This document shows positions 1 through 27,846 of a stretch of DNA of 60,106 bases, one piece after another. The DNA lies in NCBI GenBank assembly GCA_017848855.1, contig JAFIHF010000017.1, forward strand, positions 1 to 60,106. The letters run 5' to 3'. The stretch's first letter is position 1; each line of letters starts with the position of its first letter. Position numbers and translations under genes: made by a program. The notes under the pieces are model-generated. The model was not told the DNA's origin, did no database searches, and saw only the letters and a program-made list of their open reading frames with translations. This DNA is from Rhodanobacter denitrificans. Its GTDB lineage: Bacteria > Pseudomonadota > Gammaproteobacteria > Xanthomonadales > Rhodanobacteraceae.

Positions 1-1
1 G

Positions 2-745
2 GAACTCACCGCCGAGCGCTTCGTCGCCGATCCATTCTCCGCTGAACCCGGCGCACGGCTCTACCGCACCGGCGACCGCGGCCGCTGGCGCGCCGACGGC
101 TCCCTCGAACACCTCGGCCGCGCCGACTTCCAGATCAAGCTGCGCGGCTTCCGCATCGAACCCGGCGAGATCGAGGCGATCGCCCGCGAGGACGCCACGG
201 TGGCCGACGCCGCGGTCGTGCTGTGCGAGTTCTCCGCCAGCGACCAGCGCCTGGTGCTCTACGTGGCCGCCGCCGAGGCGGAAGCCACGCTGCTGCCGCG
301 CCTGCGCGGCGCGCTGGAAGCGCAACTGCCCGGCTACATGCGGCCGCAGCACATCGTGCGGCTGGAAGCGTTCCCGCAGACGCCGAACGGCAAGCTCGAC
401 CGCAAGGCGCTGCCGCCGCCGGTGGCGACGACGGAACGCGAGCCGGCGCCGCACGACGCGGACAGCGACCCGCGCCGCCGCTACTTGGGCGCGGTGTGGT
501 GCGAGCTGATCGGGGTGAGCGCGGTGGCGCCGCAGGACAACTTCTTCGACGTCGGCGGGCATTCGCTGCTGGCGGTGGAACTGGCCGCGCGCGTGCAGCG
601 CGAGACCGGCGTGCGGCTGAACCTGCTGGACATCGCCAGCGGCACCCTCGCCACGCTGGCCGGGCAGTTGCCCGAGTCCGCCGCGGCCGGGCCTCAGGCA
701 GCACCGCTCGGCCATCGCCTGCGGCGACTGCTGGGGCTGCGCTGA
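2..745 (+). CDS. NRPS-like adenylation-PCP protein, 3' part only
   Basis: The reading frame is open from the first bases of the window, so the start lies upstream. What remains is the end of an AMP-forming adenylation domain followed by a carrier domain. Adenylation motif A7 (YRTGDRG), A8 (GRADFQIKLRGFRIEPGEIE) and A10 (NGKLDRKALP) are intact, including the A10 lysine. The peptidyl carrier domain has [12 protein letters not shown], with the phosphopantetheine-accepting serine near codon 188 of the visible part. No thioesterase or reductase follows; the protein ends about 50 residues after the carrier motif. Its carrier domain is very similar to that of the next gene, suggesting duplication. 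It probably activates and tethers an amino acid or other carboxylic acid for the exopolysaccharide locus (inference). Substrate cannot be read because the A3-A6 region is outside the window. Confidence 0.9.
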   Translation, partial: ELTAERFVADPFSAEPGARLYRTGDRGRWRADGSLEHLGRADFQIKLRGFRIEPGEIEAIAREDATVADAAVVLCEFSASDQRLVLYVAAAEAEATLLPRLRGALEAQLPGYMRPQHIVRLEAFPQTPNGKLDRKALPPPVATTEREPAPHDADSDPRRRYLGAVWCELIGVSAVAPQDNFFDVGGHSLLAVELAARVQRETGVRLNLLDIASGTLATLAGQLPESAAAGPQAAPLGHRLRRLLGLR

Positions 746-838
746 TGCGTGCCGTGCGCACCTGGCCATACGTATTCGTCCATCGCCATAGCGGGATGCC
801 ATGGCTACGATGACGACATGGTTTCGATCGATGCATGT

Positions 839-856
839 CGGACAGGGGACTGTCCG
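839..856 (+). promoter_or_regulatory. Hairpin before the NRPS ribosome binding site
   Basis: A 7-bp perfect stem (CGGACAG / CTGTCCG) with loop GGGA lies just upstream of the second NRPS gene. The heptamer AGGGGAC occurs twice here, once inside the hairpin and once as the putative Shine-Dalgarno 6 nt before the ATG at 871. It may affect translation of that gene; this is inference only. Confidence 0.35.
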
Positions 857-870
857 GAACAGGGGACGAC

Positions 871-3800
871 ATGAACTACAACCTTGATGGCCGACGCACG
901 GAGCCGGTGATCGGCTCCGCCTTTCCGCTGAGCGCAATCCGCAAGGAGAAGTGGCTGGCCAGCCAGTACGGCGACGGTGCCGCGCTGGCGCTCGCCCACC
1001 TCACCGTGGTGCGGCTGGACGGCCCGCTGCACGCCGCCACGCTGGAGCAGGCCGCCGCCCATCTGTGGCGGCGGCAGCATCGCCTGCGCATCCAGCCCTC
1101 GGCCGACGGCCACACGCAGCATGTGCACGACGGCTTGCCGCTGCCGTGGGCACGGCACGATTTCTCCTCCGCCGGCGCGGCCGCGGAGGCGCGCCTGGCC
1201 GCGCACGTGCAGGCGCGCCTGCGCACGCCGTTCGATCCGGCCGTGCCGCCGCTGTTGCAGCTGGAACTGCTGCAGCTGGGCGCGGACCGGCATGCCCTGC
1301 TGCTGCACGCCCACGAACTGGTGCTCGATCGCCGCGCCAGCGCCCGCCTGCTGGCAGAACTGGCGCAGTACTACGGCGAGCTGCGCGCGGGGCAGGAACC
1401 GGCGTCCGCACCGGCGCCGCTGCCGGCCGCCGGGGATGATGCATCGCCCGCCGCATCGCTCGCCTGGTGGCGTGCGCGCCTGGCCAGCCGGCCCGATCCG
1501 CTGGCCCTGCCCGCCGACCGCCCGGCACCGCTGCGGCCGCGGTTCGACGCCGTGGGCGCGCGGCGCGTGCTGCCGGCGGCCACGCTCGCCGGCCTGCGCC
1601 GGCTGGCGCAAGCCTGCGGCCGCTCGCTGCACGAGGTGCTGCTCGGCGGCTACGCGGCCTTCCTCATGCGCATGAGCGGGCAGCACGATTTCGCGCTCGG
1701 CGTGCCGGTCGGCACGCACGGCGAGCCGCTGCACTTCCTGCCGCTGCGCCTGGGCATCGAGCCCGAGATCTCCGTCGCGGAATTGTTTGCGCGCACCGCG
1801 GGCGCGCTGCACGAGGTCCAGGCGCACGGCGAGGTCACGCTGATGGGCCTGCTGCGCGCACTCGACCTGCACCGTGGCGGCGCGGAGGCCGCCCTGGCCG
1901 GCGTCTCGTTCGAGTTCGATCCGGGCCTGCCCGGGTTTGCCTTCGCCGATCTGCGCCACCACATGCACGACGGCGGCCGCGTGGCGCTACTGGGCGAGCT
2001 GCACGCACGCGCGGCGCTGGAGGGCGATGCGCTCGCGCTCGACCTGCACGGCACCGCCGCGCGCTACGACGCGGCCACGCTGCAGCGCTGGCTGGGCCAT
2101 TACGCCACCCTGCTCGAAGCCTTCGCCGGTACCGCCGAGCCGGCGGCGCTGACGGTCGCCGAGCTGCCCCTGCTCGATGCCGCCGGGCGCGCCCAGGTGC
2201 TGCAGGCGTGGAACGACACCGCGCGCGACTACGACCTCAGCCTGGGCCTGCCGGCGCGGATCGCGGCGCAGGCGCAACGCACGCCGGGAAGCATCGCCGC
2301 CGAGTGCGCCGGCGAAGCGCTGGACTACGCCGCGCTGGAACGGCGCACCGGTGCCCTGGCGCAGGCGCTGGCACGCCGCGGCATCGGCCGCGGCGATCTG
2401 GTCGGCGTGTACGTGCCGCGCAGCCTGGACATGCTGGTCGCGGTGCTCGGCATCCTGAAGTGCGGCGCCGCCTACGTGCCGCTGGATCCGGAATTCCCGC
2501 AGCAGCGGCTCGCCTACATGGCCGCGCACGCCGGCCTGCGCCACCTGCTGGTCACCCCCGCGTTGCAGCCGCCATCCGAACTGGCCGCGGGGCGCGCATG
2601 CCTCGCGATCGGCGAGCTGGCCGCCGAGACGGGCGGCGATACGCCGCTGCCGACCGTGCATGGCGACGACCTCGCCTACGTGCTGTTCACCTCCGGCTCC
2701 ACCGGCCAGCCCAAGGGCGTGCGCATCCTGCACCGCAACCTGGTCAACTTTCTCGAAAGCATGCGCGAACGGCCGGGCTACGGCGCCGGCGACACGCTGT
2801 GCGTGGTCACCACGCTGTCGTTCGACATCGCCGGCCTGGAGCTGTACCTGCCGCTGCTCAGCGGCGGGCGCATGGTGATCGCCACCGCCGCCGAGCACGG
2901 CGATCCGTCGGCGCTGTACGCGCTGATGGCGAACAGCGGCTGCACGGTGCTCCAGACCACGCCATCGCTGCTGCGCCTGCTGCAGGGCCTCGGCCGCGAG
3001 GACGTGGTGCGCGGGCTGCGCCTGTTCGTGGGCGGCGAGGCGATGCCGCTGGCGCTGGCGCGCTCGCTGGCCGGCAACTGCCGCGAGCTGTGGAACCTGT
3101 ACGGCCCCACCGAGACCACGATCTGGTCCTCGGCGGCGCGCATCGAGCCGGGCATGGAACCGATCCCGCTGGGCACGCCGATCGCCAACACGCGCATCTA
3201 CGTGCTGGACGCGCGCGGCCAGCCGGTGCCGCCGGGCGTGGTCGGCGAGATCTGGATCGCCGGCGACGGCGTGGCCGACGGCTACCTCAACCGCCCCGAC
3301 CTCACCGCCGAGTGCTTCGTGGACGATCCCTTCGCCGGCGGGCGCATGTACCGTACCGGCGACCGCGGCTGCTGGCGCGACGGCCAGCTGTATTTCAACG
3401 GCCGCGCGGACGACCAGATCAAGATCCGCGGCTACCGCATCGAGCCGGGCGACATCGAGGCGGTGGCCGCCGCCGAGCCGGGCGTGCGCGAGTGCGTCGC
3501 CGTGGCGCAGGCCTTCGGCGACAACGACGTGCGCCTGGTGCTGTACGTGGCCGCCGCGGCGGACGACGGCTTGGCCGAACGGCTGCGCGCGCGCCTGCAC
3601 CGGCAATTGCCGACCTACATGCAGCCGCAGCACATCGAGCGGCTGGACGCACTGCCCAAGACGCCGAACGGCAAGATCGACCGCAAGGCCCTGCCACAGC
3701 CGTCCGCGGCCGCGCTGCGCGGCGTGCGGGCGCCGGCGGACGCGCTGGCCGATCCGCGCCAGTCCTACCTCGCCGCGATCTGGCGCGAGCTGATCGGCGC

Positions 3801-4029
3801 GGAACGGGTGGGCGCCAACGACAACTTCTTCGACGTGGGCGGCCACTCGCTGCTGGCGGTGGAAATGGTGGCGCGCGTGCAGCGGGAAACCTCGGTGCGG
3901 CTGCACCTGCTCGACGTGGCCTCCGGCACGCTGGCGACGCTGGCCAGCGAGCTGCCCGTGCAAGCGCAGGATGCCCCGCGGTTGCCGCTGCTGCAGCGGC
4001 TGCGCCGGCACATGGGATGGAAACGATGA
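871..4029 (+). CDS. NRPS-like protein, condensation-adenylation-PCP
   Basis: About 1052 residues. I chose ATG 871 because AGGGGA lies 6 nt upstream; an in-frame ATG at 835 has no such site. Order: condensation-like domain (about 1-430), AMP-forming adenylation domain (about 450-900; A3 [12 protein letters not shown] near 605, A5 NLYGPTETT near 742, A7 YRTGDRG near 827, A10 NGKIDRKAL), then a carrier domain with [12 protein letters not shown] and the attachment serine near 993. The condensation domain is degenerate: the HHxxxDG motif reads HELVLDR (148-154), so the catalytic second histidine is glutamate and the glycine is arginine. It may bind a carrier or acceptor without forming a peptide bond (inference). 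No thioesterase is present. Embedded in a polysaccharide operon, it probably prepares an acyl or aminoacyl group for attachment to the glycan or its lipid carrier. Confidence 0.9.
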
Positions 4030-4060
4030 CGCGCACGGTCAACCACACGGGAGTGCGGCC

Positions 4061-5191
4061 ATGACGGACCTGGCGGTGCTGCTCTTCGTCTTGTCGGCGC
4101 TCGGCCTCGTGCACGTCTTCGTCGGCTACCCGCTGTGGGTGGTCGCGCTGGCGCGCTGGCGGCCGCGCCCGGTGCAGCGGTGCGCATGGACGCCGCGCGT
4201 CACCGCGGTGCTCGCCGTGCACGACGGCGCCGCGCACGTGCGCGCGAAGCTGGAAGGCCTGCTCGCGCTGGACTACCCGCCGGAGCTGCTCGACATCGTG
4301 GTGGCCTGCGACGGCTGCCGCGACGACAGCGCGGCGCTTTGCCGGCAGCTGGGCGACGCGCGCATCCGCGTGCTGGAGTTCGCCGAGCGGCGCGGCAAGG
4401 CCGCCTGCATCAACGACGCGGTGGCCGCGGCGCGCGGCGAAGTGCTGCTGCTGACCGACGTGCGCCAGCGGCTGGAGCCGGACGCGCTGCGCCAGCTGGT
4501 CGCGAACCTCGGCGACCCGCGCGTGGGCGCGGTCGGCGGGCAACTGCGCCTGTTCGACGCGCAGACCGGCTTCGCCCGCGGCATCGATGCGTACTGGCGC
4601 TACGAGACGCTGATCCGCGCCAGCGAGAGCCGCTCGGGTTCGGTCATCGGCGTCAGCGGCGCGCTGTACGCGATGCGGCGCGAGCTGTTCCGGCCGCTGC
4701 CGCCGGGCACCGTGCTGGACGACGTGCTGGTGCCGATGCAGGTGGCCGCGGCCGGCTGGCGCGTGGTGTACGAGCCGGCGGCGGTGGCCTGGGACGGCAG
4801 TACGCAGCAGCCGCACGAGGAGCAGCGGCGCAAGATCCGCACGCTGGCCGGCAACTACCAGCTGGTGCAGCTGGCGCCGTGGCTGCTGCTGCCCTGGCGC
4901 AATCCGCTGTGGTTCCGCTTCGTCAGCCACAAGCTGCTGCGCCTGCTGGCGCCGTGGCTGCTGCTGGCGCTGGCGCTCTCGGCGGCGCTGCTGGCGACGC
5001 GGCATGCGCTGTTCGCGGCGACCGCGCTGGCGCTGCTCGCGGCGCTCGCCGCGGTGGTGGCCGGGCGCCTGCTGCCGGCGCTGGGCCGGCACCTGCCGGT
5101 GCGGCTGCTGACCGCGTTCTGCTATCTCAACCTGTTCGCCGCGCAGGCGCTGCTGGCGTTCGCGCGCAACCGGAGGCTGCATCTGTGGTGA
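4061..5191 (+). CDS. GT2 family membrane glycosyltransferase
   Basis: 376 residues, starting at ATG 4061 behind GGAG. It has an N-terminal membrane helix (about 5-25), a GT-A fold catalytic region with the nucleotide-binding start VTAVLAVHDGA, an acidic LLTDVRQRL segment, a DDVLVPMQ segment and a QRRKIRTLAGN stretch resembling the QxxRW-type acceptor motif, then three hydrophobic segments at the C-terminus (about 280-370). This layout fits processive or lipid-linked GT2 enzymes acting at the inner membrane face. It would add a sugar to the undecaprenyl-linked repeat unit of the exopolysaccharide. The donor sugar cannot be predicted. It follows the NRPS gene by 31 bp and is probably co-transcribed. 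Confidence 0.88.
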   Translation: MTDLAVLLFVLSALGLVHVFVGYPLWVVALARWRPRPVQRCAWTPRVTAVLAVHDGAAHVRAKLEGLLALDYPPELLDIVVACDGCRDDSAALCRQLGDARIRVLEFAERRGKAACINDAVAAARGEVLLLTDVRQRLEPDALRQLVANLGDPRVGAVGGQLRLFDAQTGFARGIDAYWRYETLIRASESRSGSVIGVSGALYAMRRELFRPLPPGTVLDDVLVPMQVAAAGWRVVYEPAAVAWDGSTQQPHEEQRRKIRTLAGNYQLVQLAPWLLLPWRNPLWFRFVSHKLLRLLAPWLLLALALSAALLATRHALFAATALALLAALAAVVAGRLLPALGRHLPVRLLTAFCYLNLFAAQALLAFARNRRLHLW

Positions 5192-5267
5192 TCCACTGGC
5201 ATGATCGGCGCGTTCCTTCGGCAGCATGCGGCGGTGCGCCTGCGGGCGCAGGCGGAGAGTGGTGCCC

Positions 5268-6701
5268 ATGTTCCTGCTGATCCTCGTCTACCTCGGTTTC
5301 GCGATCGTCCGCCCGCAGGACTACCTGCCGGGCATGGCGGGCCTGCCGGTGATGTCGGCGACCCTGCTGCTGGCCTTCGCCGGCTGGCTGCTGCGTGGCG
5401 CGCGCACGCCCGGCGCGCCGCAGTTCCTGCTGCTACCACTGTTCGTGCTGATCGCGATGGCCTCGCTGGTGGTCAACGGCTGGAGCGGCGGCGTGGTCTA
5501 CGCGCTCGAACAGCTGGGGCCCTCGCTGATCGTGTTCTTCGTGCTGGCGAGCGCGATCGACGACCCGCGCCGCACCGCCGCCACCTTCACGGTGATCGGC
5601 CTGTGCGCGATGGTGCTGGCCCTGCACAGCGTGCAGCAGGCCGAACACGGCGTGGGCTGGACCGGCATGACCCTGGGCGAGGACGGGCGCATTCGCTACG
5701 TGGGCATCTTCAACGACCCCAACGACCTCGGCCTGCTGTTCGTGATGGCGCTGCCGATGCTGTTCTGCCTGTCCACGCGCGCCGGCTTCCTCGGCCGCTG
5801 GTTCTGGCGCGCCGGCATCGTGCTGCTGCTGGCCGGCGTGTACCTGACCAAGTCGCGCGGCACCCAGCTGGCGGTGCTGATGATGGGCGCGATCTGGTTG
5901 TGGCAGAAGCGCGGCCTGCTCACCGCCGGCACGCTGAGCTTCGCCGGCCTGGTCGGCCTGATGCTGCTGCCGTCCACCCGCATGAACGACCTCGATCCGG
6001 ACGAGGAGTCCGCCTTCGGCCGCGTGGACGCGTGGTACGAGGGCTTCGACATGTTCAAGACGCATCCGTTGTTCGGCGTGGGCTTCGGCAATTTCACCGA
6101 CTACAACACGCTGACCGCGCACAACTCGTTCGTGCTGGTGCTGGCCGAGACCGGCTTCCTGGGCTTCGTGACCTGGCTGGCCTTCATCGGCTACGGCTTC
6201 TGGATGATGTGGCGGCTGCTGCAGCTGCAGGCCGGGCTGACGCAGGCGGTGCAGGCCACCGTGCGCGCCGTGGCCACGGTGCGCCCGCCGGCGCGTCTGG
6301 CACTGGCGCAGGCGCTGCCCGCCGGCACCGGCGCGCCGCAGCGGCAGCAGGCGCTGGCGCGCGGGACGGTCGCCGCGGCGCCTGCCTCGGGAACCGTGGC
6401 GGACCACGCCGACGCCGCGGCGGCAGAGCAGCAGGCCCGCGCCGAACAGACGCTGTCGCTGACCCTGTTCTGCGCGTTGTGCGGCTTCTTCACCGCCGCG
6501 TTCTTCCTCAGCCGCAGCTACAACATGATGCTCTACACGCTGGCCGCGATCGTCGTGGGCCACTACGCCAGCATGCGTAGCCGCCACGATGCGCTGCCGC
6601 GTTTCACCCTCTCGGCCAGCGGCTGGCGCTGGCTGCCGATCTCGCTGGTGGTCATCGCGGCGCTCTACGTGCTGGTGGCCGTGCTGTTGCGGATGTCATG
6701 A
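5268..6701 (+). CDS. O-antigen ligase-like polymerase, exosortase A-associated type
   Basis: 477 residues, starting at ATG 5268 (MFLLILVYLGFAIVRPQDY). It is a polytopic membrane protein with around ten hydrophobic segments. The N-terminal IVRPQDYLPG, the central FNDPNDLGLLFVMALP and the later HNSFVLVLAETGFLGF segments are typical of the Wzy/WaaL-like family called putative O-glycosylation ligase, exosortase A-associated. It likely polymerises or transfers the lipid-linked glycan on the periplasmic side. Unusual: an Ala/Arg/Gln-rich low-complexity stretch of about 75 residues (roughly 330-405) is inserted between the last membrane segments, making the protein longer than I expect for the family. 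Its stop overlaps the flippase start in an ATGA. Confidence 0.85.
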   Translation: MFLLILVYLGFAIVRPQDYLPGMAGLPVMSATLLLAFAGWLLRGARTPGAPQFLLLPLFVLIAMASLVVNGWSGGVVYALEQLGPSLIVFFVLASAIDDPRRTAATFTVIGLCAMVLALHSVQQAEHGVGWTGMTLGEDGRIRYVGIFNDPNDLGLLFVMALPMLFCLSTRAGFLGRWFWRAGIVLLLAGVYLTKSRGTQLAVLMMGAIWLWQKRGLLTAGTLSFAGLVGLMLLPSTRMNDLDPDEESAFGRVDAWYEGFDMFKTHPLFGVGFGNFTDYNTLTAHNSFVLVLAETGFLGFVTWLAFIGYGFWMMWRLLQLQAGLTQAVQATVRAVATVRPPARLALAQALPAGTGAPQRQQALARGTVAAAPASGTVADHADAAAAEQQARAEQTLSLTLFCALCGFFTAAFFLSRSYNMMLYTLAAIVVGHYASMRSRHDALPRFTLSASGWRWLPISLVVIAALYVLVAVLLRMS

Positions 6702-8248
6702 CCTCACGCTCGCTCACCTTGCGCAACACGCTGTTCTCCTCGCTGGGGATCTACGTCGAGTACTTCCTCGGCATGGTCTGCGCGGTGCTGATCGCGCGCC
6801 ACCTGGGGCCGCACCACTACGGCATCTACGGCCTGTTCATCTGGTTCGCCGCGATCGGCATCGTGGTGACGAACTCGGGCATCACCACCGGCGTGATCAA
6901 GTTCGTGGCGGAGCTGCGCGGCAGCCGGCAACCCGAGCTGATCCGACCGCTGCTCGGCTACATGCGCAAGGTGCAGCGCTGGCATCTTCTGGTGGTGCTG
7001 GGCATCGGCCTGGGCCTGTACCTGCTGCTCGGGCAGCGTTACGCCGCCGAGCTGGACCCGCTGGAATTCGCGCTGCTCGCAGCCGCGGTGGGCATGCGCG
7101 CGCCGTACATGTTCAACGTGGCAGTCGCGAAGGGTTTCGAGGCGTTCGACGCGACCGCGCGGATTACCCTGGTGGCCGCGCCGACCAATCTGGCGCTGGT
7201 GGTCGCCGCGATGCTGCTGCACGGCGACATCCTGTGGTTCGTGGTGATGTATGCGCTCTCCAGCGCGGTGTTCCTGCTCGCCTCGCAGTACCAGGTGCAC
7301 CGGCTGCTGGCGCCGCTGCCGCGCCGCGGCAGCCTGCCGGGCGAGCTGCTGCAGCGCGTGCGCCGGCACCTGAAGATCGTCTCGCTGACGATCATCGTGA
7401 GCTTCCTGATCGCCAGCGACGTGGAGATCCTGTTCCTCAACATGTTCGCCAGCGCGACCGCGGCGGGCTACTTCAAGGTGGCCTACCAGCTGGCCAGCGG
7501 CATCATGCTGCTGGTGCCCGGCGTGTTCGGCGCGGTGCTGCTGCCGATGATGGCGAAGGCGCTGAGCGAGGGCCGCGCCGTGGGCGGCCGCCGCTTCGTG
7601 GCGGTGACCTCCTACCTGGTCCTGCTCGGCGCGCCGGTGGTGGCGTTCGGCGCCTGCTTTGCCGCTGCGGTGATCGGCCTGCTGTACGGCAGCGCCTACG
7701 CCGCCGCCGCGCCGGTGTTCGCGCTGTGCATGCTGGCCAGCGCGCTCAACACCTCGACCCAGGGCGCGACCAGCCTGCTGGTGAGCGCCGACCGCCAGCA
7801 CGTGATCCTCACGCTGACCCTGCTGTTCGGCGTGTTCAAGATCGCGATGGACGTGACCCTGATCCGCCACTTCGGGCTGCACGGCGCGATGGCGGCGATC
7901 CTGATCGCCGCCGCGGTCAGCTCCTCGGCCTACCTGCTGCTGGGCATGCACGTGGGCGGCGTGCCGCTGGAGTGGCGCCGGCTCGCACGCATCGTGCTGG
8001 CCGCGCTCCTGGCCGGCGCGGCCGCCGCGCTGGTGCTGCCGCTGCACCTGCCGCCGCTGGCCACGCTGCTGCTGGGCGGTCCGCTGCTGGTCGCGGCCTA
8101 CGCGCTGTTCACCCTGTGGCTGCGCTGCTGGACCCCGGCGGACATCGCGCAGCTGAAAGAGCTGCACCTGCGCTTCGCGGCGGGGCGCCCGCTGCTGCTG
8201 GGGCGCTTGCTGGATTGGTCGGGCACACGCGCGGAGCAGCGCTCATGA
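6698..8248 (+). CDS. Polysaccharide flippase (Wzx-like, MOP superfamily)
   Basis: 516 residues with about 12-14 predicted membrane helices, beginning LRNTLFSSLGIYVEYFLGMV, the usual start of polysaccharide-biosynthesis (Polysacc_synt) flippases. It would move undecaprenyl-linked repeat units across the inner membrane to the polymerase encoded just before it. Translation is coupled to neighbours on both sides by ATGA overlaps (6698-6701 and 8245-8248). No catalytic motif is expected in this family; the assignment rests on topology, size and context. Confidence 0.87.
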   Translation: MTSRSLTLRNTLFSSLGIYVEYFLGMVCAVLIARHLGPHHYGIYGLFIWFAAIGIVVTNSGITTGVIKFVAELRGSRQPELIRPLLGYMRKVQRWHLLVVLGIGLGLYLLLGQRYAAELDPLEFALLAAAVGMRAPYMFNVAVAKGFEAFDATARITLVAAPTNLALVVAAMLLHGDILWFVVMYALSSAVFLLASQYQVHRLLAPLPRRGSLPGELLQRVRRHLKIVSLTIIVSFLIASDVEILFLNMFASATAAGYFKVAYQLASGIMLLVPGVFGAVLLPMMAKALSEGRAVGGRRFVAVTSYLVLLGAPVVAFGACFAAAVIGLLYGSAYAAAAPVFALCMLASALNTSTQGATSLLVSADRQHVILTLTLLFGVFKIAMDVTLIRHFGLHGAMAAILIAAAVSSSAYLLLGMHVGGVPLEWRRLARIVLAALLAGAAAALVLPLHLPPLATLLLGGPLLVAAYALFTLWLRCWTPADIAQLKELHLRFAAGRPLLLGRLLDWSGTRAEQRS

Positions 8249-9603: not shown

Positions 9604-9611
9604 ATGCATCG

Positions 9612-14908: not shown

Positions 14909-14909
14909 A

Positions 14910-15743
14910 TCAGCCTGCCGGCGCCGTCTTCGGCGCCGCCGGAAACTGCTCCTGCAGCCAGCTCTCGATGTGGCCGAACAGGCGCTCGCGGTCGCAGAGC
15001 AGGGTGTAGGTGTGGTCGGTGCCGTCGAGCAGGTCCATGCGCAGCGCCGGATGGTCGGCCACGCCGCGGCCGTAGCATTCGCGGAACTGGCGCGGATGGT
15101 TGAGCTGCTCGCCGATGCCGCCGCTGTAGACGAAGTAGAGCCTCAGGCCGCGCGCCAGCATGCCGGCGAGCTCGCCGCGCACCTGCGCCCGGGGCGGATA
15201 GACGCTGCCGAAGGAGACTTCCTCCTCCGGCGCCAGCGCCGCGCGCAGCTTGCGCGCGAGGAAGCCGCGCCAGCGCGCGGGGCTGAGCAGCCGCGGCAGG
15301 TAGTGGCGCAGCTTGAAGCCGAAAGTGCGGTAGATGTAGCCATCCAGGAAGATCGCGCCGGCCACGCCCGCCTCGCTGCAGGCGACGTGCGCGCTCTGCG
15401 CACCGCGGCACAGGCCGACCAGCACGAAACGCGTGCAGCCGGCCTGGCCCGCGAGCAGCGCGGCGGCATCGTGCACGTCGGCACGGATCTGCTCCTCGCG
15501 CGAACCGGCTTCCGCGCTGGCACCGCTGTCGCCCATGGTGGACAGGTCGAAGCGCAGGGTGGGATAGCCGAGCGCATTGAGCCGGCGGGTCAGGTCCACG
15601 TGCAGGCGGAACGGGCCGACGCGATGCATCAGGCCGGTGTTGAGCACGATCACGCCGACCGCGCCGGGCGCGGCAGGCGGCAGGCCGACCATGCCCACCA
15701 GGTGGCGGGCGCGGCCGAAGCGGAAGGCGCGCTCGGCCATCAT
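14910..15743 (-). CDS. Alpha/beta hydrolase, exosortase A-associated hydrolase 1 type
   Basis: 277 residues from ATG 15743, which overlaps the upstream gene's stop. Alpha/beta hydrolase fold with GLMHRVGPFRLHVDL, LRFDLSTMGDS and the nucleophile elbow VGLCRGAQ, placing cysteine 112 in the GxCxG position where serine is usual; this matches the family called hydrolase 1, exosortase A system-associated. A C-terminal GTDHTYT provides the likely catalytic histidine. It is encoded last in the Wza-EpsL operon, paired with hydrolase 2 as in exosortase A loci. Substrate unknown; a role in processing an acyl or aminoacyl substituent fits the nearby NRPS genes but is inference. Confidence 0.82.
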   Translation of the reverse strand: MMAERAFRFGRARHLVGMVGLPPAAPGAVGVIVLNTGLMHRVGPFRLHVDLTRRLNALGYPTLRFDLSTMGDSGASAEAGSREEQIRADVHDAAALLAGQAGCTRFVLVGLCRGAQSAHVACSEAGVAGAIFLDGYIYRTFGFKLRHYLPRLLSPARWRGFLARKLRAALAPEEEVSFGSVYPPRAQVRGELAGMLARGLRLYFVYSGGIGEQLNHPRQFRECYGRGVADHPALRMDLLDGTDHTYTLLCDRERLFGHIESWLQEQFPAAPKTAPAG

Positions 15744-16513
15744 GCGGCCCGCTCCAGCGCCTCGCCCACCACGCGCAGCAGGTCGGGAGCGAGGATGGCG
15801 TGCTCCAGCCGGTGCAGGTCGCCCCAGTGCGTGCTCGTCGACATCGCGCACACCTGCGCGCCGGCCTCCACCAGCGGCGACCAGCCGCCGGCCGCCGGCT
15901 CGGGGCGCGAGTCGAGGATCAGGGTCGGCACCCGCGCCGGTTCGGCACGCCAGCCGGCCAGCTGCGCGCGCCACTGCGCGCCGACCGGGAAACCCAGCCA
16001 CTGCCCGGCCGCCTCCTCCACCGTGCGGGGCTTGGCGTAGTGCAACGGATCGGTGCGCAGCGCTTCCTGCCAGGCGTCCAGCTCGGCCACGTGGCGGGCG
16101 CCGTCCAGCACCGGATCCCACAGGATCAGCCGCGCGAAGCCCGCCGCCGACGCCGCCGCCAGCGCCAGGCTGCCGCCCAGCTGCGCGCCGAAACCGACCA
16201 CCGTGGCGCAGCCGCTGCGCACGCGCAGTTCGGCCGCCGCGCTGCGGATGTCGGCGAGGCAGTGCTGCCAGTCCAGCGCGAGGCTGTCGCCGGCCGAGTC
16301 GCCGGTGCCGCGGTAGTCGAAGCGCAGCGCGCCGATGCCGCGCGTGGCCAGGCCATGGGCCAGCTGGCGGTACACGCGGTGGGTGCGCAGCAGCGCCTGG
16401 CCCAGCGGCGGGCACAGCAGCACACCCACCGGCGCATGGCCGGCCGTGCCGTGGTACATCCCGATCAGCGCTCCGTCGCGTCCGAACTGGCAAGGCTCCG
16501 ATGCCGGCGTCAT
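15740..16513 (-). CDS. Alpha/beta hydrolase-like, exosortase A-associated hydrolase 2 type
   Basis: 257 residues starting at ATG 16513, which overlaps the epsL-like stop. The LLCPPLGQALLRTHRVYRQL and LRFDYRGTGDSAGD blocks resemble hydrolase 2, exosortase A system-associated. The nucleophile elbow reads GAQLGG (109-114), with glutamine 111 where a catalytic serine would stand, so ordinary esterase chemistry is unlikely. As I recall, family members elsewhere also lack serine here. The tandem with hydrolase 1 and the ATGA coupling suggest the two proteins work together, perhaps as active plus non-catalytic subunits (inference). Confidence 0.8.
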   Translation of the reverse strand: MTPASEPCQFGRDGALIGMYHGTAGHAPVGVLLCPPLGQALLRTHRVYRQLAHGLATRGIGALRFDYRGTGDSAGDSLALDWQHCLADIRSAAAELRVRSGCATVVGFGAQLGGSLALAAASAAGFARLILWDPVLDGARHVAELDAWQEALRTDPLHYAKPRTVEEAAGQWLGFPVGAQWRAQLAGWRAEPARVPTLILDSRPEPAAGGWSPLVEAGAQVCAMSTSTHWGDLHRLEHAILAPDLLRVVGEALERAA

Positions 16514-17820
16514 CGCTGGTAGACAACCCCGAAGTAGATTTCCTTCGCGCGGTAGCCGCTGTCCGGCGCGCTGCTGGTGCGGTGGCGGTCGAGCAGCGAC
16601 GCGCGCCAGCTCCAGTGGCTGTTGAGCTGCTGGCGCAGCGCCACGCCGACGTTGGTCGTGGTATCGCGGCGCGCCAGCGTGGTGTAGTGCTCCCGCTCGT
16701 AGTTGGCGAAAGCCGAGAGCGTCAGCCGCGCGCTGAGGCGGTAACCCACGCCGGCATTGGCGCCGCGGCCGGTTTCGTCCGGCTGGGTGCCCTCCACGTA
16801 ATGCAGCTTGCGGTACCACGGCGACAGGCTGAAGCTGAAGCGCTCGCCGCTGTAATCGTAATGGGCGTCCAGGCGCCGTTCGAGGTAGATCCCGCTGCCG
16901 ATCACCGCGCCGCCGGTCTGGATGCTCAGCGGGGCGGAAACCCGCCCGCCGGTTTCCGCCGGCTCGACCAGGTTGATCAGGTCCTGCGCGGCATCCGAAT
17001 AGCCGCGCGCGTAGGAAATCCCGAACGTGTTGCGGGCGCTTGCATGCCAGCTGGCATTCGCGCGCACCAGCGGGTCGGAAGCCGAACCCTTGCCCCCGCT
17101 CAGGCGGATATGCGACCAGCCCGCAGCCAGGTCGAAGTCCAGGTGCGCGAGCCGGCGCACGAAACCGACGAACGCCTCGTCGCGGCGGTAATCCACCTCG
17201 CCGCGGTCATCGAAATTGACCTTTTGCGATTCCAGGTTGAGCGAAAGCTGGCTGGTGGGCGAGAGATCGCGCATCAGCCGCAGCGCCGCAGCGCCGCGCG
17301 AGGAATTGAACTGGGTGGTGCGCGAGGCGCGGCTGTTGATGTAGCGCAGCTCCGCCTGGCCGCGCATGGCGGTGCCCAGGTTGAAATGCAGGGTCGGCCC
17401 CACCGTGAGCACGTTGGTCTGCTGCTGGTTGCCCGGCGCGTCGCTGGACAGCGTGGAGATCGGCTGCACGCTGGCGTAGTCCTGCGCCGTGAAATCCAGC
17501 CGCCCGGGCAGCACGATCCAGTTCGCCAGCCCGGCCAGTTCGCCGAGCTTCTGGTTCGCATAGCGGCCGCCCAGGTAGTCGCGGTATTCCGCCGCGCCGG
17601 TCACGTGGGCCTGCAGCGTGGCGCCCTGCTGCACGTAGTCGAAGCCGAAGCCGGGAATCAGCACCCACTGGCTCTCCGGCGCCGTGGGGCTGAGGTTGAT
17701 GTTGTCGCTGTACTCGACGCCGCCGTAGAACGAGTAGTTGAACTGGCCGGCGAACGCCGGCGCGGCGACGAGCGCGAGCGCCAACGAAATGGCGCGGGCT
17801 AAGCGGGTGGATGAGGACAT
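16510..17820 (-). CDS. EpsL-like outer-membrane beta-barrel of EPS export
   Basis: 436 residues. A clear signal peptide (about 1-24, cleavage after APAFA) precedes a body of alternating polar/hydrophobic strands rich in aromatic residues, for example GQFNYSFYGGVEYSDNINL and a C-terminus ending in YFGVVYQR. This is the pattern of an outer-membrane beta-barrel and fits the EpsL-type protein of exopolysaccharide operons. It probably forms or supports the outer-membrane exit of the polymer, alongside the Wza-like protein. It overlaps the downstream hydrolase gene by 4 bp and follows the kinase-like gene by 74 bp. Confidence 0.8.
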   Translation of the reverse strand: MSSSTRLARAISLALALVAAPAFAGQFNYSFYGGVEYSDNINLSPTAPESQWVLIPGFGFDYVQQGATLQAHVTGAAEYRDYLGGRYANQKLGELAGLANWIVLPGRLDFTAQDYASVQPISTLSSDAPGNQQQTNVLTVGPTLHFNLGTAMRGQAELRYINSRASRTTQFNSSRGAAALRLMRDLSPTSQLSLNLESQKVNFDDRGEVDYRRDEAFVGFVRRLAHLDFDLAAGWSHIRLSGGKGSASDPLVRANASWHASARNTFGISYARGYSDAAQDLINLVEPAETGGRVSAPLSIQTGGAVIGSGIYLERRLDAHYDYSGERFSFSLSPWYRKLHYVEGTQPDETGRGANAGVGYRLSARLTLSAFANYEREHYTTLARRDTTTNVGVALRQQLNSHWSWRASLLDRHRTSSAPDSGYRAKEIYFGVVYQR

Positions 17821-17894
17821 GCTGCCTCCTGCGTTGGACGACGTGGCGACGACGCCCGCCCGCGCCCTGCCCGGGCGGCGGTTCGCCGCCGGCC

Positions 17895-18662
17895 TCAGGG
17901 CGCCTGGTTGAACACCACGCCGGCCAGCTTCTCCGGCTCGAAATGGGCCACCGCCTGGCTGATCGCGGCGGGCGTGTCGCGACCGTAGCCGGCCACCACC
18001 ACCACGAAATCGGCGAGGTCGGAAAGGATGCGCGCGTCCGGCGAGCCCTTGATCGTGGGACCGTCCAAGAACAGGTAGCGGTCCGCGTAGCGGTGGCGCA
18101 TCGAATCGAGCAGCGCGTGCATGCGGAACGAGGAGAAATACTCGCCGCTGTCCTCGCGCACCTCGCCCGCCGGGATCAGCCGCAGGCGCGGCACACCGGT
18201 GGCGTAGATCCGCGACGCGATGCCCTGCGCGGGGTGATCCAGGAAATCGATCAGGCCGCCGTTGGCCGGATCGACGCCGAGCGCGCGGTGCTGCTCCGGG
18301 TAGCGCAGGTTGCAGTCGATCAGCAGGCTGGTGCGGGCCTCGTCGAAGGCGAACGCGGCGGCCAGGTTGCGCGCCACGAAGCTGGCCCCCGAGCCGGGGC
18401 TGACCGCGACCACCAGGGTGACGAAATTGCTGTCGCCGCCCATGCCGAGCAGGCGCGTGCGCAGCTCGCGGAAGACATCCGACTGCGCCCGCGACGAGGC
18501 ATCGCGGTGGATCAGCCGGCGCTCCTCCAGCTGCCGCGGGGCCAGCGCGCGCGGCTCGGCCATCAGCGCGATGGTATGCGCGGAGGCCTGCTGCGGCAGG
18601 TGGTCGGCGCCCTCCGCCTCGGCCCGCAGCACCGCGTCGGAAATCGATTTGTCGGGCTTCAT
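17895..18662 (-). CDS. Tyrosine autokinase (BY-kinase)-like protein with degenerate P-loop
   Basis: 255 residues starting ATG 18662, overlapping the chain-length gene's stop. The fold and position are those of CpsD/EpsG-type BY-kinases: an ExxRxxR helix (FRELRTRLL), a P-loop region, LLIDCNLRYP and a Walker B-like YLFLDGP. However, the Walker A motif reads PGSGAS (89-94) with alanine 93 replacing the ATP-binding lysine, Walker A' reads DCNLR instead of DxDxR, and there is no C-terminal tyrosine cluster. Kinase activity is therefore doubtful. It may instead be a structural partner that regulates chain length (inference). It could also retain weak ATP binding. Confidence 0.85.
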   Translation of the reverse strand: MKPDKSISDAVLRAEAEGADHLPQQASAHTIALMAEPRALAPRQLEERRLIHRDASSRAQSDVFRELRTRLLGMGGDSNFVTLVVAVSPGSGASFVARNLAAAFAFDEARTSLLIDCNLRYPEQHRALGVDPANGGLIDFLDHPAQGIASRIYATGVPRLRLIPAGEVREDSGEYFSSFRMHALLDSMRHRYADRYLFLDGPTIKGSPDARILSDLADFVVVVAGYGRDTPAAISQAVAHFEPEKLAGVVFNQAP

Positions 18663-20206
18663 GCCGCCCCCTTGAGCTTGAACACGAACAGCGTGAGGTA
18701 GGACAGCGCCACCACCGCCAGGATCAGCGCCAGCGCCAGGTTGCGCAGCCGTGCACGGCGCAGGTCCTCCGGCGTGGCGTAGTAGGGCACGGTGACCAGC
18801 ACGGGCAGGCCGGTCAGTCGCTCGAGCTGCTCGGCCGAGCGCACGCGCGGATCGAAGCGGGCGATGCCGAACAGCAGGCCCAGCGGCAGCGCCAGGCCGA
18901 GCAGGGTGCCGGCCACGGCGAAGTGCATGAAGCGCAGCCCGGTGGGGACCAGCGGCATCATCGCGGGGTTCTGCACGGCGAAGGTCAGGCCCTGCTGGGT
19001 GGCGTCCAGGTCCATCGACACGCGCGCGTTCTCGCGGCGCTTGAGCAGGTCCTGGTAGACGTCGCGGTTGACGTCGTAGTCGCGGGTCAGGTCGGCGGTG
19101 GCGTTCTCGGAACCGGCGATGCGGCGGCTGCGCTCGAGCTCGGACTGCAGCATCGCCTGGCTGGCGTTCATCCGCGCGGTGGTCGCGGCGATCTGGGCGC
19201 GCAGGTCGGTGAGCTGGCTCTTGATCTGCTGATACAGCGGGTTGAACTGCGCGCCGCCGTCGAGCGCGGTCGGCTTGCCGCCGGCCGCGTTGCGCCGTTG
19301 CTGCTCGGCTCGCGCCAGCTGCTGCTGCAGGTCCTGCATCTGGTGGCGCACGCGCACCACGTCGGGGTAGTCGTCGGTATAGGTGAGCAGCAGCTTGTTC
19401 AGTTGCGCCTGCAGCTCGGCCAACTGAGCCTGGTACAGGCCGGCCGCGGTCTGCACCGTGGAGACTTCCGACTCGCCGGACAGCTGCGCCGCCAGCGAGG
19501 CTTCCTGCGAGCGCTTCTCCATCAGGTCCATGCGCGCGTTTTCCACCTGCGTCCGCAACTCGTTGATGCGCGCGGCGGTGGCGGCCTCGCTGCCCGGACG
19601 CGCGTCGGCATTGCTCTCGCGGTAGGTCTTGAGCTTGTCCTCGGCGCTGGTGAGCTTGCGCTTGTAGGCCTCGACCTGGCCGTTGATGAAGTCGAACGCG
19701 TCGCGGCTCTCGCGCTGCTTGGAGGCCAGGCTCTCGCTGATGAACAGCTGGCCGAACAGGCGGGTGACCTTGTAGGTGCGCGCGGGATCGGAATCGAAGT
19801 AGCTGATGGTCAGCAGGTTGTCGCGCGAGAACTTCACCGTGGTGCGCGACTTGATGCCGTTGGCGATGCGGTCGAGCTCCACCGGGCTGGGATGGCTGTC
19901 CAGCCAGCCGCCTTGGGCGAGCACCTGGTCCAGCACCTTGTGGCTCAGGATCACCGCGCGCGCGATGTCGGCGCGGTTCGCGTTGCCGGTGGGCGTGGCG
20001 GCGCCCTTCATCAGCGGCGCGATGATGCTGCTCTCCTGCACCAGGATGGTGGTGGAGGCCTCGTACTTCTTCGGCCACAGCAGGCCCACGACCAGTGCGG
20101 CCAGCGTGATCGCGGCGAACACCAGCCCCAGCGCGACACGGCGGCGGCGGCCCTCCTCCAGCAGCACGGGCAGCAGGGCCTGCAGTGAAATCGCTTGTTC
20201 GTTCAT
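18659..20206 (-). CDS. Polysaccharide chain-length determinant (Wzz/GumC family)
   Basis: 515 residues. A short cytoplasmic start is followed by a membrane helix (about 24-44) and WPKKYEASTTILVQ, the Wzz-type periplasmic beginning. A long central region (about 150-400), rich in Gln, Ala, Glu and Arg, should form coiled coils. Membrane helices near 428-448 and 490-510 close the protein. The size and the LPVLVTVPYY segment between the last two helices resemble the exosortase-linked chain-length determinant. It acts in the inner membrane as the polysaccharide copolymerase, with the kinase-like protein as its cytoplasmic partner. The stop overlaps that gene's start. Confidence 0.88.
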   Translation of the reverse strand: MNEQAISLQALLPVLLEEGRRRRVALGLVFAAITLAALVVGLLWPKKYEASTTILVQESSIIAPLMKGAATPTGNANRADIARAVILSHKVLDQVLAQGGWLDSHPSPVELDRIANGIKSRTTVKFSRDNLLTISYFDSDPARTYKVTRLFGQLFISESLASKQRESRDAFDFINGQVEAYKRKLTSAEDKLKTYRESNADARPGSEAATAARINELRTQVENARMDLMEKRSQEASLAAQLSGESEVSTVQTAAGLYQAQLAELQAQLNKLLLTYTDDYPDVVRVRHQMQDLQQQLARAEQQRRNAAGGKPTALDGGAQFNPLYQQIKSQLTDLRAQIAATTARMNASQAMLQSELERSRRIAGSENATADLTRDYDVNRDVYQDLLKRRENARVSMDLDATQQGLTFAVQNPAMMPLVPTGLRFMHFAVAGTLLGLALPLGLLFGIARFDPRVRSAEQLERLTGLPVLVTVPYYATPEDLRRARLRNLALALILAVVALSYLTLFVFKLKGAA

Positions 20207-20248
20207 GGCGCTCGCCTCTTCTCCTTGAGGCCCCCTCGGGCGTCTGTT

Positions 20249-20878
20249 TTAGAAACTGCGCTGCGGCACCGTGATCACGTCACCGGGCTGCAGCGGATAG
20301 TTGGTGGCCAGGTCGCCGTCGTTGAGGATCTTGCCCAGGCGCACGGCATAGGCCTGGTTTTCCCCCTGGCCGGCGTGGCGGTAGAGCTCGGTGCGGTCCG
20401 GCGAGGCGAATTCGGTGACGCCGCCGGCAGCGAGCACCACGTCGAGCACGGTCATGCCCTGGCGATAGGGCAGTGAGACGGGCGTGCGCACGGCGCCGGT
20501 GACGCGCACGCGGGCCAGGTATTCGTGGCTGCGCAGCTGGGTCAGGATCACCGCCACCTGCGGGTCGCGCACGTAGGCCGTCAGCTTGTCGCGGATCACC
20601 GCGGCCACTTCCTCCGGCGTCTGCCCGCCGGCCTGCACGTCACCGATCAGCGGCACGGTGATCTTGCCGTCCGGACGCACCGGCACCGACACGCTGAGGT
20701 CGGGGTTGTGCCACACGGAGACCTGCAACTGATCGTCCACGCCGATGCGGTAATTGCTGACCGCCATGGCGTCGGTGCTGGCTTTCGGCGGCTGGGTCGA
20801 TGGCGTCACTGAAGCGCAGCCACCTACTACAAACGCCAGCAGCAGTACAACGAGCACGATCAATCGCTTCATGGTCAT
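20249..20878 (-). CDS. Polysaccharide export lipoprotein (Wza/EpsE-like)
   Basis: 209 residues. The N-terminus MTMKRLIVLVVLLLAFVVGG precedes a lipobox cysteine (VVGGCAS), so it is lipidated. YRIGVDDQLQVSVWHNPDLS and VRPDGKITVPLIGDVQAGGQT are the polysaccharide export (Poly_export) signature, followed by an SLBB-type domain (RVTGAVRTPVSLPYRQGMTV) and an ending PGDVITVPQRSF. It lacks the C-terminal amphipathic helix of E. coli Wza, so it probably needs the EpsL-like barrel to cross the outer membrane (inference). First gene of the leftward EPS operon. ATG 20872 is an alternative start. Confidence 0.9.
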   Translation of the reverse strand: MTMKRLIVLVVLLLAFVVGGCASVTPSTQPPKASTDAMAVSNYRIGVDDQLQVSVWHNPDLSVSVPVRPDGKITVPLIGDVQAGGQTPEEVAAVIRDKLTAYVRDPQVAVILTQLRSHEYLARVRVTGAVRTPVSLPYRQGMTVLDVVLAAGGVTEFASPDRTELYRHAGQGENQAYAVRLGKILNDGDLATNYPLQPGDVITVPQRSF

Positions 20879-24355: not shown

Positions 24356-24428
24356 GCCCCGCACCCGTGGCGATGCGGCGCGGAAAGGCGGGTGGAAAGG
24401 CTGCGATTCATGTCCTGCTCAACGTGCA

Positions 24429-24458
24429 CGCGGCGAAACGGTTGATCGTTTCGCCGCG
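24429..24458 (-). other. 12-bp perfect hairpin between the two RND permease genes
   Basis: CGCGGCGAAACG pairs with CGTTTCGCCGCG around a 6-nt loop. There is no T-tract after it on the minus strand, so it is not a standard terminator. It could stabilise the upstream mRNA end or reduce read-through into the second permease (inference). The sequence between the genes is otherwise featureless. Confidence 0.6.
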
Positions 24459-24501
24459 CTGGATGCGCACCGTCGCGCGGTGCCGGGTAGCGTAGTACGC
24501 C

Positions 24502-27744: not shown

Positions 27745-27846
27745 GGGTGTCCGTGCTGCTGTCTGGATGGCGTCCTGCTCGCCGGGGCCGGGGCCGCCGG
27801 GAGGCGATGCGTGGCCCGCCGCCATCGTGGCGACGGGGGTCTGGCG

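What the first reader, a model, noticed from the sequence alone, without database searches (positions are those of the whole stretch)
1..20878. EPS locus wired to NRPS-like and PaaK-like activating enzymes
Seen: two NRPS-type A-PCP proteins and a PaaK/CapK-like adenylate-forming enzyme lie in one largely ATGA-coupled operon with GT2/GT4 enzymes, flippase, polymerase and two deacetylase-like proteins, facing a Wza/Wzz/EpsL operon. Known: exosortase A-associated EPS loci carry the ligase, hydrolase 1 and 2, chain-length and EpsL families. Inference: three acid-activating enzymes without thioesterase suggest that carrier-bound amino or acyl groups are transferred to the glycan, giving an aminoacylated polymer. 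This is my best candidate for an undescribed system.
Basis: partly seen in the sequence, partly recalled or inferred. Interest (0 to 1): 0.75.

Follow-up and report, generated by a model that had tools for sequence, protein, structure and literature searches.

The report
Peptide assembly line inside slime locus
Many Rhodanobacter-like bacteria carry, inside the gene cluster for their outer slime sugar, a full assembly line of the kind that makes antibiotic-like peptides, and its usual release domain seems to be replaced by a separate enzyme pair known from other slime clusters, which suggests that the slime is decorated with a custom peptide.

Summary
The window starts at a contig end that cuts an NRPS gene. 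In relatives G011 and G007 the locus continues upstream with a hybrid NRPS-PKS (A-T-KS-AT-T-aminotransferase) and a priming transferase. The assembly line lies in the EPS locus in Rhodanobacter, Dyella, Luteibacter and Pinirhizobacter (41 of 80 named loci). The PaaK-like enzyme is not its partner: it stays in EPS loci without NRPS. What travels with the NRPS is the hydrolase 2/1 pair. Two lineages lost the NRPS independently, keep nearly all other EPS genes, and also lack the pair, although the two pieces sit at separate sites. Two genomes with an orthologous NRPS but no pair carry a built-in thioesterase; 0 of 40 EPS-linked chains have room for one. In four classical loci read, the pair follows a carrier protein. 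Hydrolase 1 has an invariant Cys nucleophile; hydrolase 2 shows none. Best reading: the pair replaces the thioesterase and moves the carrier-bound product, probably onto the polysaccharide. Covalent attachment is inferred, not shown; a free small molecule is the main rival. No matching report was found in the open-licence library searched.

The parts
2..745 (+). C-terminal A-T end of a dimodular NRPS (NRPS2), 5' part cut by the contig start
   Evidence: PF13193 and PF00550; 87% identical to the end of G011 NRPS2 module 2
835..4029 (+). NRPS3: C (no HHxxxDG found), A (code read by eye as D-I-L-Q-L-V-L-I-W, Gly-like by recall), T; no thioesterase
   Evidence: start may be 871
3971..5191 (+). GT2 glycosyltransferase (start possibly 4061)
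   Evidence: PF13641/PF00535
5226..6701 (+). Wzy_C-type polymerase/ligase
   Evidence: PF04932; TIGR03097 below cut-off
6698..8248 (+). Wzx-type flippase
   Evidence: PF01943
8245..9603 (+). PaaK-like adenylate-forming enzyme, EPS core, kept where the NRPS is absent
   Evidence: NCBIfam matches below cut-off
9612..10727 (+). GT4 glycosyltransferase
   Evidence: PF00534/PF13439
10724..11896 (+). GT4 glycosyltransferase
   Evidence: PF13692
11893..12543 (+). polysaccharide deacetylase
   Evidence: PF01522
12540..13709 (+). GT4 glycosyltransferase
   Evidence: PF13692
13706..14908 (+). conserved 400-aa EPS-core protein, N-terminal helix, many invariant His/Asp/Glu, function unknown
   Evidence: no Pfam family over cut-off; 62-89% identical to 17 relatives
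14910..15740 (-). hydrolase 1-like alpha/beta hydrolase with Cys111 at the nucleophile elbow; proposed release/transfer enzyme
   Evidence: TIGR03100 80.8 bits, cut-off 168.45; Cys in 14 of 14 aligned rows; alpha/beta-hydrolase fold
15740..16513 (-). hydrolase 2-like alpha/beta hydrolase without Ser/Cys at the elbow; proposed partner
   Evidence: TIGR03101 75.3 bits, cut-off 202.75; elbow read by eye
16510..17820 (-). EpsL-type outer-membrane beta-barrel
   Evidence: TIGR03016 70.8 bits, cut-off 90.85
17895..18662 (-). XrtA-type tyrosine autokinase
   Evidence: TIGR03018 164.8 bits, cut-off 230.65
18659..20206 (-). XrtA-type Wzz chain-length determinant
   Evidence: TIGR03007 376.6 bits, over cut-off 278.85
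20249..20878 (-). XrtA-type Wza export protein
   Evidence: TIGR03027 211.9 bits, over cut-off 180

Best explanation
The locus makes an exopolysaccharide by the Wzx/Wzy route and, in parallel, a carrier-bound peptide on a hybrid NRPS-PKS. NRPS1 loads an acid, extends it (KS-AT) and transaminates the keto group, giving a beta-amino unit; NRPS2, and in this genus NRPS3, add about two to three further residues, one predicted Gly-like. There is no thioesterase. Hydrolase 1 (Cys nucleophile), with the nucleophile-less hydrolase 2, takes the product off the last carrier and transfers it, most likely as an amide or ester on the EPS repeat, giving a peptidyl-polysaccharide. Shown by sequence: domain order, absence of thioesterase, joint presence and loss of NRPS and hydrolase pair, thioesterase in orthologues without the pair, carrier-hydr2-hydr1 order in the classical loci read. 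Inferred: that the pair acts on the carrier-bound product, that it transfers rather than hydrolyses, that the acceptor is the polysaccharide, and the nature of the residues. The PaaK-like enzyme serves another step of EPS synthesis.
For: NRPS runs into GT2, Wzy and PaaK in 9 of 14 relative regions mapped. NRPS upstream of Wzy in 41 of 80 named loci; none in 25, undetermined in 7, not an EPS locus in 7. Of 233 family genomes: aminotransferase domain in 104, hydrolase 1 in 95, both in 92. Among 94 genomes with the EPS-core marker: both 81, NRPS only 1 (G078, which has the pair right downstream by a finer search), pair only 3 (G117 has NRPS at a contig end), neither 9. Tree of 85 rows: three changes of state, which may be one gain and two losses; in the two losses, G206 and G219, the pair is gone as well at E<=1e-3 over 40 kb. 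The pair follows the last NRPS match by less than 0.2 kb, same strand, in 14 of 27 further genomes inspected. G075 and G065: no pair found, built-in thioesterase in NRPS2 (PF00975 in G075; 85% identical in G065). 0 of 40 chains in 39 named loci have more than 200 aa after the last carrier motif. Four classical loci read: carrier protein, hydrolase 2, hydrolase 1 adjacent, ligase beside them; 20 of 20 genomes with TIGR03100 over cut-off have TIGR03098 over cut-off. Cys and His invariant in 14 of 14 hydrolase 1 rows.
Against: No acceptor or product has been seen. The TE-bearing orthologues in G075/G065 show that this kind of line can release a product without the pair, possibly as a free molecule. 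The pair is not always beside the NRPS: of 92 genomes with both, hydrolase 1 is on the same contig in 74 and within 50 kb in 70; in G143, G151, G154 and G170 it lies 76-465 kb away on one contig. G098 has the NRPS beside Wza but hydrolase 1 on another contig; G371 shows no pair in the 20 kb fetched and G431 only a weak hydrolase 2-like match (26%). Hydrolase 1 and 2 of the window score below the curated cut-offs. In G206 the NRPS slot holds a deacetylase, a GNAT/FemAB-like and a DnaJ-domain protein and the hydrolase slot two Acyl_transf_3 proteins, but deacetylase and GNAT genes also occur in NRPS-bearing loci (G023, G017, G035), so this is no clean swap. The deacetylase that could free an acceptor amine is also present in NRPS-free loci.
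Confidence: 0.5

Rival explanations
1. The NRPS-PKS makes a free, secreted small peptide (signal, chelator, matrix-bound but unlinked molecule); the EPS locus is only its genetic home and the hydrolase pair is a stand-alone thioesterase that hydrolyses or cyclises it.
For: G075 and G065 carry orthologous NRPS with a built-in thioesterase; no window EPS export gene was matched in the fetched G075 (40 kb) and G065 (15 kb) stretches. NRPS is not needed for the EPS locus to persist. Luteibacter-type loci have an RND-permease-like ORF nearby.
Against: No dedicated exporter was recognised among the ORFs scanned in the window, C10 and relatives (not a full annotation); position inside the EPS operon is kept across genera; the same kind of pair follows carrier proteins in classical EPS loci.
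Confidence: 0.32
2. Hydrolase 1 and 2 act on the glycan (quality control, like AlgL or PslG), as suggested for Bcam1334 in another EPS cluster, and their link to the NRPS is indirect.
For: A paper on a Burkholderia EPS cluster proposes this for a TIGR03100 protein (PMC3584217, passages read).
Against: The pair is missing from EPS loci that lack the NRPS (six checked over 40 kb) and sits behind carrier proteins elsewhere; an alpha/beta-hydrolase fold with a Cys elbow is not a usual glycosidase (the last point recalled).
Confidence: 0.07
3. Neighbourhood only: the NRPS landed in a variable region of the EPS locus and stays there without any functional tie.
For: EPS loci are variable islands; many relatives lack the NRPS; in four genomes the pair lies far from the NRPS.
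Against: Few changes of state over several genera, ATGA-type junctions in the operon, and joint loss with a second piece at another site twice.
Confidence: 0.06
4. The product goes on a protein or on lipid-linked intermediates other than the EPS, for instance through the Wzy_C protein acting as an O-oligosaccharyltransferase.
For: Best NCBIfam match of the Wzy_C protein is TIGR03097, a putative O-glycosylation ligase, far below its cut-off (53.4 against 188.1 bits).
Against: Wza, Wzz, EpsL and kinase for EPS export are present in the window and in most relatives mapped; no exosortase found in the own genome.
Confidence: 0.05

Closest known systems
Exosortase A-associated (so named by NCBIfam) EPS loci with ligase TIGR03098, decarboxylase TIGR03099, carrier protein and hydrolases TIGR03100/TIGR03101
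   Same: XrtA-type Wza/Wzz over cut-off; EpsL, kinase and hydrolase 2/1 pair related; carrier followed by hydr2 and hydr1
   Different: Stand-alone ligase, carrier and decarboxylase replaced by a multi-enzyme NRPS-PKS; no exosortase found in the own genome; hydrolases below the curated cut-offs. Exosortases were not searched for in the classical genomes
Dlt (D-alanylation of teichoic acids) and Alm (glycylation of lipid A) systems
   Same: Adenylation, carrier protein, then transfer of an amino acid to a surface glycopolymer or LPS (one passage of PMC3783018 read)
   Different: Here a multi-module assembly line with PKS and aminotransferase, and an alpha/beta hydrolase pair instead of DltB or AlmG
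Hybrid NRPS-PKS natural product lines with an aminotransferase domain and a C-terminal thioesterase
   Same: Same domain types; orthologues in G075/G065 have the thioesterase
   Different: In EPS loci no thioesterase; embedded in EPS genes; last module without an A3 motif in 22 of 40 chains
PHA synthase and Cys-type thioesterases (recalled)
   Same: Cys in the nucleophile elbow of an alpha/beta hydrolase, thought to favour acyl transfer
   Different: No sequence or structure match to them among the hits shown; comparison from memory only

Membership tests
XrtA-type EPS locus | XrtA-type Wza and Wzz over curated cut-offs | tested here: met
   TIGR03027 211.9 bits (cut-off 180), TIGR03007 376.6 bits (cut-off 278.85)
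XrtA-type EPS locus | exosortase gene in the genome | tested here: not met
   PF09721: no match at E<=0.001 in the own genome, 92.7% complete; relatives not tested
TIGR03100 hydrolase 1 | score over curated cut-off | tested here: not met
   80.8 bits against 168.45
TIGR03100 hydrolase 1 | conserved Cys elbow and C-terminal His | tested here: met
   C111 and H243 invariant in 14 rows incl. two from classical loci
TIGR03101 hydrolase 2 | score over curated cut-off | tested here: not met
   75.3 bits against 202.75
NRPS assembly line | C, A and T domains with core motifs | tested here: met
   exception: no HHxxxDG found in the C domain of NRPS3
NRPS assembly line | terminal thioesterase or reductase | tested here: not met
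   no such Pfam family in the window chains, which end 62-66 aa after the last carrier motif; 0 of 40 related chains have more than 200 aa there
Dlt/Alm-like glycan aminoacylation | transfer of a carrier-bound group to a glycan | not testable with these tools
   needs EPS chemistry
Dlt/Alm-like glycan aminoacylation | DltB (MBOAT) or AlmG-type transferase | tested here: not met
   no such family among the window locus proteins scanned with Pfam

The most novel reading that the evidence does not exclude
A peptidyl-polysaccharide: each EPS repeat (or many) bears a short NRPS-PKS-made peptide with a beta-amino unit, attached by a two-protein transferase (Cys hydrolase 1 plus pseudo-hydrolase 2) that has replaced the thioesterase. 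The same pair would be the transferase for small acyl or amine groups in classical exosortase-type EPS loci, giving two protein families of unknown function a job.
Probability: 0.42. Interest if true: 0.87.

Novelty: new variant of a known kind. Interest (0 to 1): 0.72.

Why it matters
NRPS-PKS lines are read as makers of free small molecules, and genome mining would probably file these clusters as orphan natural products. If the product is fixed to the exopolysaccharide, a new way of building chemically rich biofilm matrices is open, and searches for free compounds would miss it. It also gives a direct, testable role to hydrolase 1 and hydrolase 2 of exosortase-type EPS loci, whose NCBIfam models are typed only 'hypoth_equivalog'. 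The natural experiments found here (two joint losses, a thioesterase in orthologues without the pair) make the hypothesis testable with few mutants.

Tried and rejected
Rejected: a joint role of PaaK and NRPS (PaaK is kept without NRPS); the RND pump genes at 21212-27825 as part of the system (no match to the first of them in the 60 kb of G007; though some Luteibacter-type loci have another RND-like ORF); a direct C10-C46 end join by sequence overlap (none; about 3.7 kb missing by comparison with G011). Led nowhere: structure of the 400-aa protein (pLDDT 65); firm substrate prediction (codes read by eye from motif spacing; the Gly code and other specificity codes are recalled, and no call tested them; one search lists only related solved A domains); families for the 968-aa and 373-aa upstream proteins. 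Literature searches without a matching system: (open-licence library only). The Fisher value printed is not corrected for kinship and is not used; the tree is, but it rests on one protein (PaaK), its labels come, and two of its 'no NRPS' rows (Luteimonas L117, L128) do have NRPS-like sequence on the other strand at the edge of the locus.

The hydrolase 1 count at E<=1e-25 misses divergent copies (G078, G086, G087, G097 found later), so 'both' is a lower bound. Of the nine EPS-core genomes with neither, six were checked over 40 kb (G018, G079, G083, G091, G206, G219); G082, G088, G101 only on contigs of 4-9 kb besides the genome-wide searches. The two 'pair only' genomes G104 and G180 remain undetermined (short contig; contig starting in Wzy). 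Of the 41 named NRPS loci, L075 and L095 gave no chain. Of five classical loci fetched four were read; L188 gave no usable gene calls.
Full report
What is there. The window is a whole contig (C46, 60106 bases) of a 3.49 Mb genome; its nearest named relative in the locus is Rhodanobacter sp. C06 (PaaK-like protein 93%). The + operon holds the end of one NRPS (2-745), a C-A-T NRPS (835-4029), GT2, Wzy_C, Wzx, a PaaK-like enzyme, GT4, GT4, polysaccharide deacetylase, GT4 and a 400-aa protein without a Pfam family; the - operon reads Wza, Wzz, tyrosine kinase, EpsL, hydrolase 2, hydrolase 1. The two operons converge at 14908/14910.

What lies to the left. The contig starts inside an NRPS gene. Contig C10 ends inside an NRPS gene in the same sense; upstream of it are a 2387-aa protein with A-T-KS-AT-T-aminotransferase class III, a priming sugar transferase and a UDP-sugar dehydrogenase. 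In G011 (two contigs, 4.1 Mb) and G007 these pieces are contiguous in the order expected, with a 968-aa and a 373-aa protein of no known family between priming transferase and NRPS1; the end of C10 maps to 16330 and the start of the window to 20033 of the G011 region, so about 3.7 kb is missing. The two A domains of G011 NRPS2 are identical over the stretch printed; such a repeat would explain the assembly break (inference).

How the NRPS is distributed. The PaaK alignment found 116 relatives in named genomes, of which the best 80 loci were kept: Rhodanobacter, Dyella, Luteibacter, Frateuria, Pinirhizobacter, Dokdonella, Pseudoxanthomonas, Luteimonas, Lysobacter and unnamed MAGs. NRPS lies upstream of Wzy in 41 of 80, is absent from the 5.7-7.2 kb seen upstream in 25, is undetermined at contig ends in 7, and 7 Dyella hits are PaaK homologues outside an EPS locus. 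A tree of 85 PaaK rows (53 with NRPS, 32 without) needs three changes of state, forced by well-supported branches; these may be one gain and two losses. Two of the 'without' rows (Luteimonas L117, L128) have NRPS-like sequence on the other strand at the locus edge. In 233 genomes of the family the aminotransferase domain is found in 104; the 400-aa EPS-core marker or the priming transferase lies within 50 kb on the same contig in 87 of these. Of the other 17, ten are split over contigs or cut by a contig end, G094 (and G098 of the ten) has Wza and Wzz right beside the NRPS, G065 and G075 bear the thioesterase, and G139, G144, G251 and G255 are distant homologues of 42-46% identity. In a class-wide sample the domain is found in 6 of 229 genomes, five besides the own one; three of these five (G300, G425, G444) have the hydrolase pair beside it.

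The partner is the hydrolase pair. Among the 233 genomes 92 have both the aminotransferase domain and hydrolase 1, 12 only the first, 3 only the second, 126 neither. Of the 92, hydrolase 1 is on the same contig in 74 and within 50 kb in 70; in G143, G151, G154 and G170 it is on the same contig but 76-465 kb away. The exceptions shrink on inspection: of the 12, G078, G086, G087 and G097 have hydrolase 2 and 1 directly downstream of the NRPS, G065 and G075 have a thioesterase instead, G064 and G246 are cut by contig ends, and G139, G144, G251 and G255 are the distant homologues. Of the 3, G117 has NRPS modules at a contig end; G104 and G180 are undetermined. Within the 94 EPS-core genomes nine have neither. 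Two of these, G206 (contig of the length of Rhodanobacter sp. C03) and G219 (that of a MAG), lie on two separate, well-supported branches among NRPS-bearing Rhodanobacter. Both keep priming transferase, 968-aa protein, GT2, Wzy, Wzx, PaaK, GT4s (G219 lacks the third), deacetylase, 400-aa protein, EpsL, kinase, Wzz and Wza, and lack both the NRPS and the pair at E<=1e-3 over 40 kb. The NRPS slot and the hydrolase slot are apart in the locus, so two joint losses argue for a joint function. In G206 the first slot holds a deacetylase, a GNAT/FemAB-like protein and a DnaJ-domain protein, the second two Acyl_transf_3 proteins, a 604-aa protein and an epimerase; but deacetylase, GNAT and epimerase genes also occur in NRPS-bearing loci, so I do not build on this.

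Other layouts. In 14 of 27 further genomes inspected (G250, G092, G081, G241, G095, G087, G078, G086, G097, G425, G444, G094, G256, G080) the hydrolase 2 match starts within 0.2 kb after the last NRPS match and hydrolase 1 follows, same strand; in G300 the pair precedes NRPS genes; in G131 it lies next to the EpsL end of the Wza operon as in the window; G065 and G075 have the thioesterase; the other nine (G139, G028, G064, G246, G371, G431, G144, G251, G098) show no full pair in the stretch fetched, four of them at contig ends. In G094 the order is NRPS, hydrolase 2, hydrolase 1, Wza, Wzz, kinase, EpsL on one strand.

Thioesterase instead of the pair. G075 NRPS2 ends C-T-TE (PF00975, 113.8 bits), and G065 has the same TE (85% identical); neither shows the pair in the stretch fetched or in the genome-wide search at 1e-25. 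Of 40 NRPS chains from 39 named EPS loci none has more than 200 aa after the last carrier motif. In 22 of these 40 the last module lacks the A3 motif; of three examined, two have a weak A domain (144 and 101 bits) and one none, while C and T domains remain.

Classical loci. In a class-wide sample TIGR03100 is over cut-off in 20 of 229 genomes and TIGR03098 in 30 of 229; all 20 are among the 30. Five such loci were fetched and four read (L187, L189, L190, L191). In each a carrier protein (PF00550) is followed directly by an ORF of hydrolase 2 size and the TIGR03100 gene (located), with the TIGR03098 ligase (located) within 2.5 kb of it. TIGR03101 was confirmed for L189 and L190, TIGR03099 decarboxylase for L189 and L190. 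So the pair sits behind a carrier in both settings.

Mechanism. Hydrolase 1 has G-L/I/V-C-x-G/A-A at the nucleophile elbow; Cys111 and His243 are invariant in 14 rows, two from classical loci; the model is an alpha/beta hydrolase (pLDDT 85.5). Hydrolase 2 shows no Ser or Cys at this place in the rows where the elbow was printed (read by eye). A Cys elbow is thought to favour acyl transfer over hydrolysis (recalled, PHA synthase and some NRPS thioesterases). I therefore propose that the pair takes the finished chain from the last carrier and passes it to the polysaccharide. What is attached, where and when (before or after Wzx) is unknown. NRPS1 should give a beta-amino unit; NRPS3 A has a code I read as D-I-L-Q-L-V-L-I-W, close to a Gly code that I recall; no call tested this. 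No HHxxxDG was found in the C domain of NRPS3, which may be inactive.

Known or new. The link of EPS, carrier protein and these hydrolases exists as NCBIfam models, and Dlt and Alm show that carrier-bound amino acids can go to surface polymers (PMC3783018, one passage). One paper lists a TIGR03100 protein in a Burkholderia EPS cluster and suggests a glycan-trimming role (PMC3584217, passages). I found no report of an NRPS-PKS as part of an EPS locus of this kind. Papers looked into: PMC1569441 (term search only, no occurrences), PMC3584217, PMC3102044, PMC9850573 and PMC3783018 (passages only); the rest only as listings.

Noticed in passing
L010:5811-8717 (contig C10) and relatives: 968-aa protein behind the priming transferase has no Pfam family but weak tblastn similarity (24-28%) to two G018 ORFs, one with a clear and one with a sub-cut-off Hepar_II_III_C match; perhaps a polysaccharide lyase-like protein.
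   Followed up: partly
window 13706-14908: The 400-aa protein of unknown family is well conserved (62-89%) and kept in NRPS-free loci of both families; many invariant His/Asp/Glu residues.
   Followed up: partly
L071, L113: Two PaaK-like genes in tandem in some EPS loci; seven Dyella loci (L068, L069, L073, L097, L099, L101, L104) have a PaaK homologue outside any recognised EPS locus.
   Followed up: no
L117, L128 (Luteimonas): NRPS-like sequence on the opposite strand at the left edge and a GT2 relative on the minus strand to the right: perhaps a rearranged version of the locus.
   Followed up: no
L142:3467-8822 (G075): Beside the TE-bearing NRPS, G075 has a GT2, a sulfotransferase and an A-T-TE gene: maybe a glycosylated or sulfated free product.
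   Followed up: no
G024, L086, L103: RND-permease-like ORF (24-25% to the window's 21212-24355 protein) downstream of the 400-aa gene in Luteibacter-type EPS loci.
   Followed up: no
window 21212-27825: Two RND permease genes (MdtB/MdtC type) downstream of Wza; no relative of the first was found in the 60 kb around the locus of G007.
   Followed up: partly
G143, G151, G154, G170: Hydrolase 1 relatives 76-465 kb away from the NRPS on the same contig: the pair can be unlinked and still be present.
   Followed up: no
window locus: XrtA-type EPS export genes without any exosortase found in the own genome (92.7% complete), so the polymer may have outlived the sorting system.
   Followed up: partly
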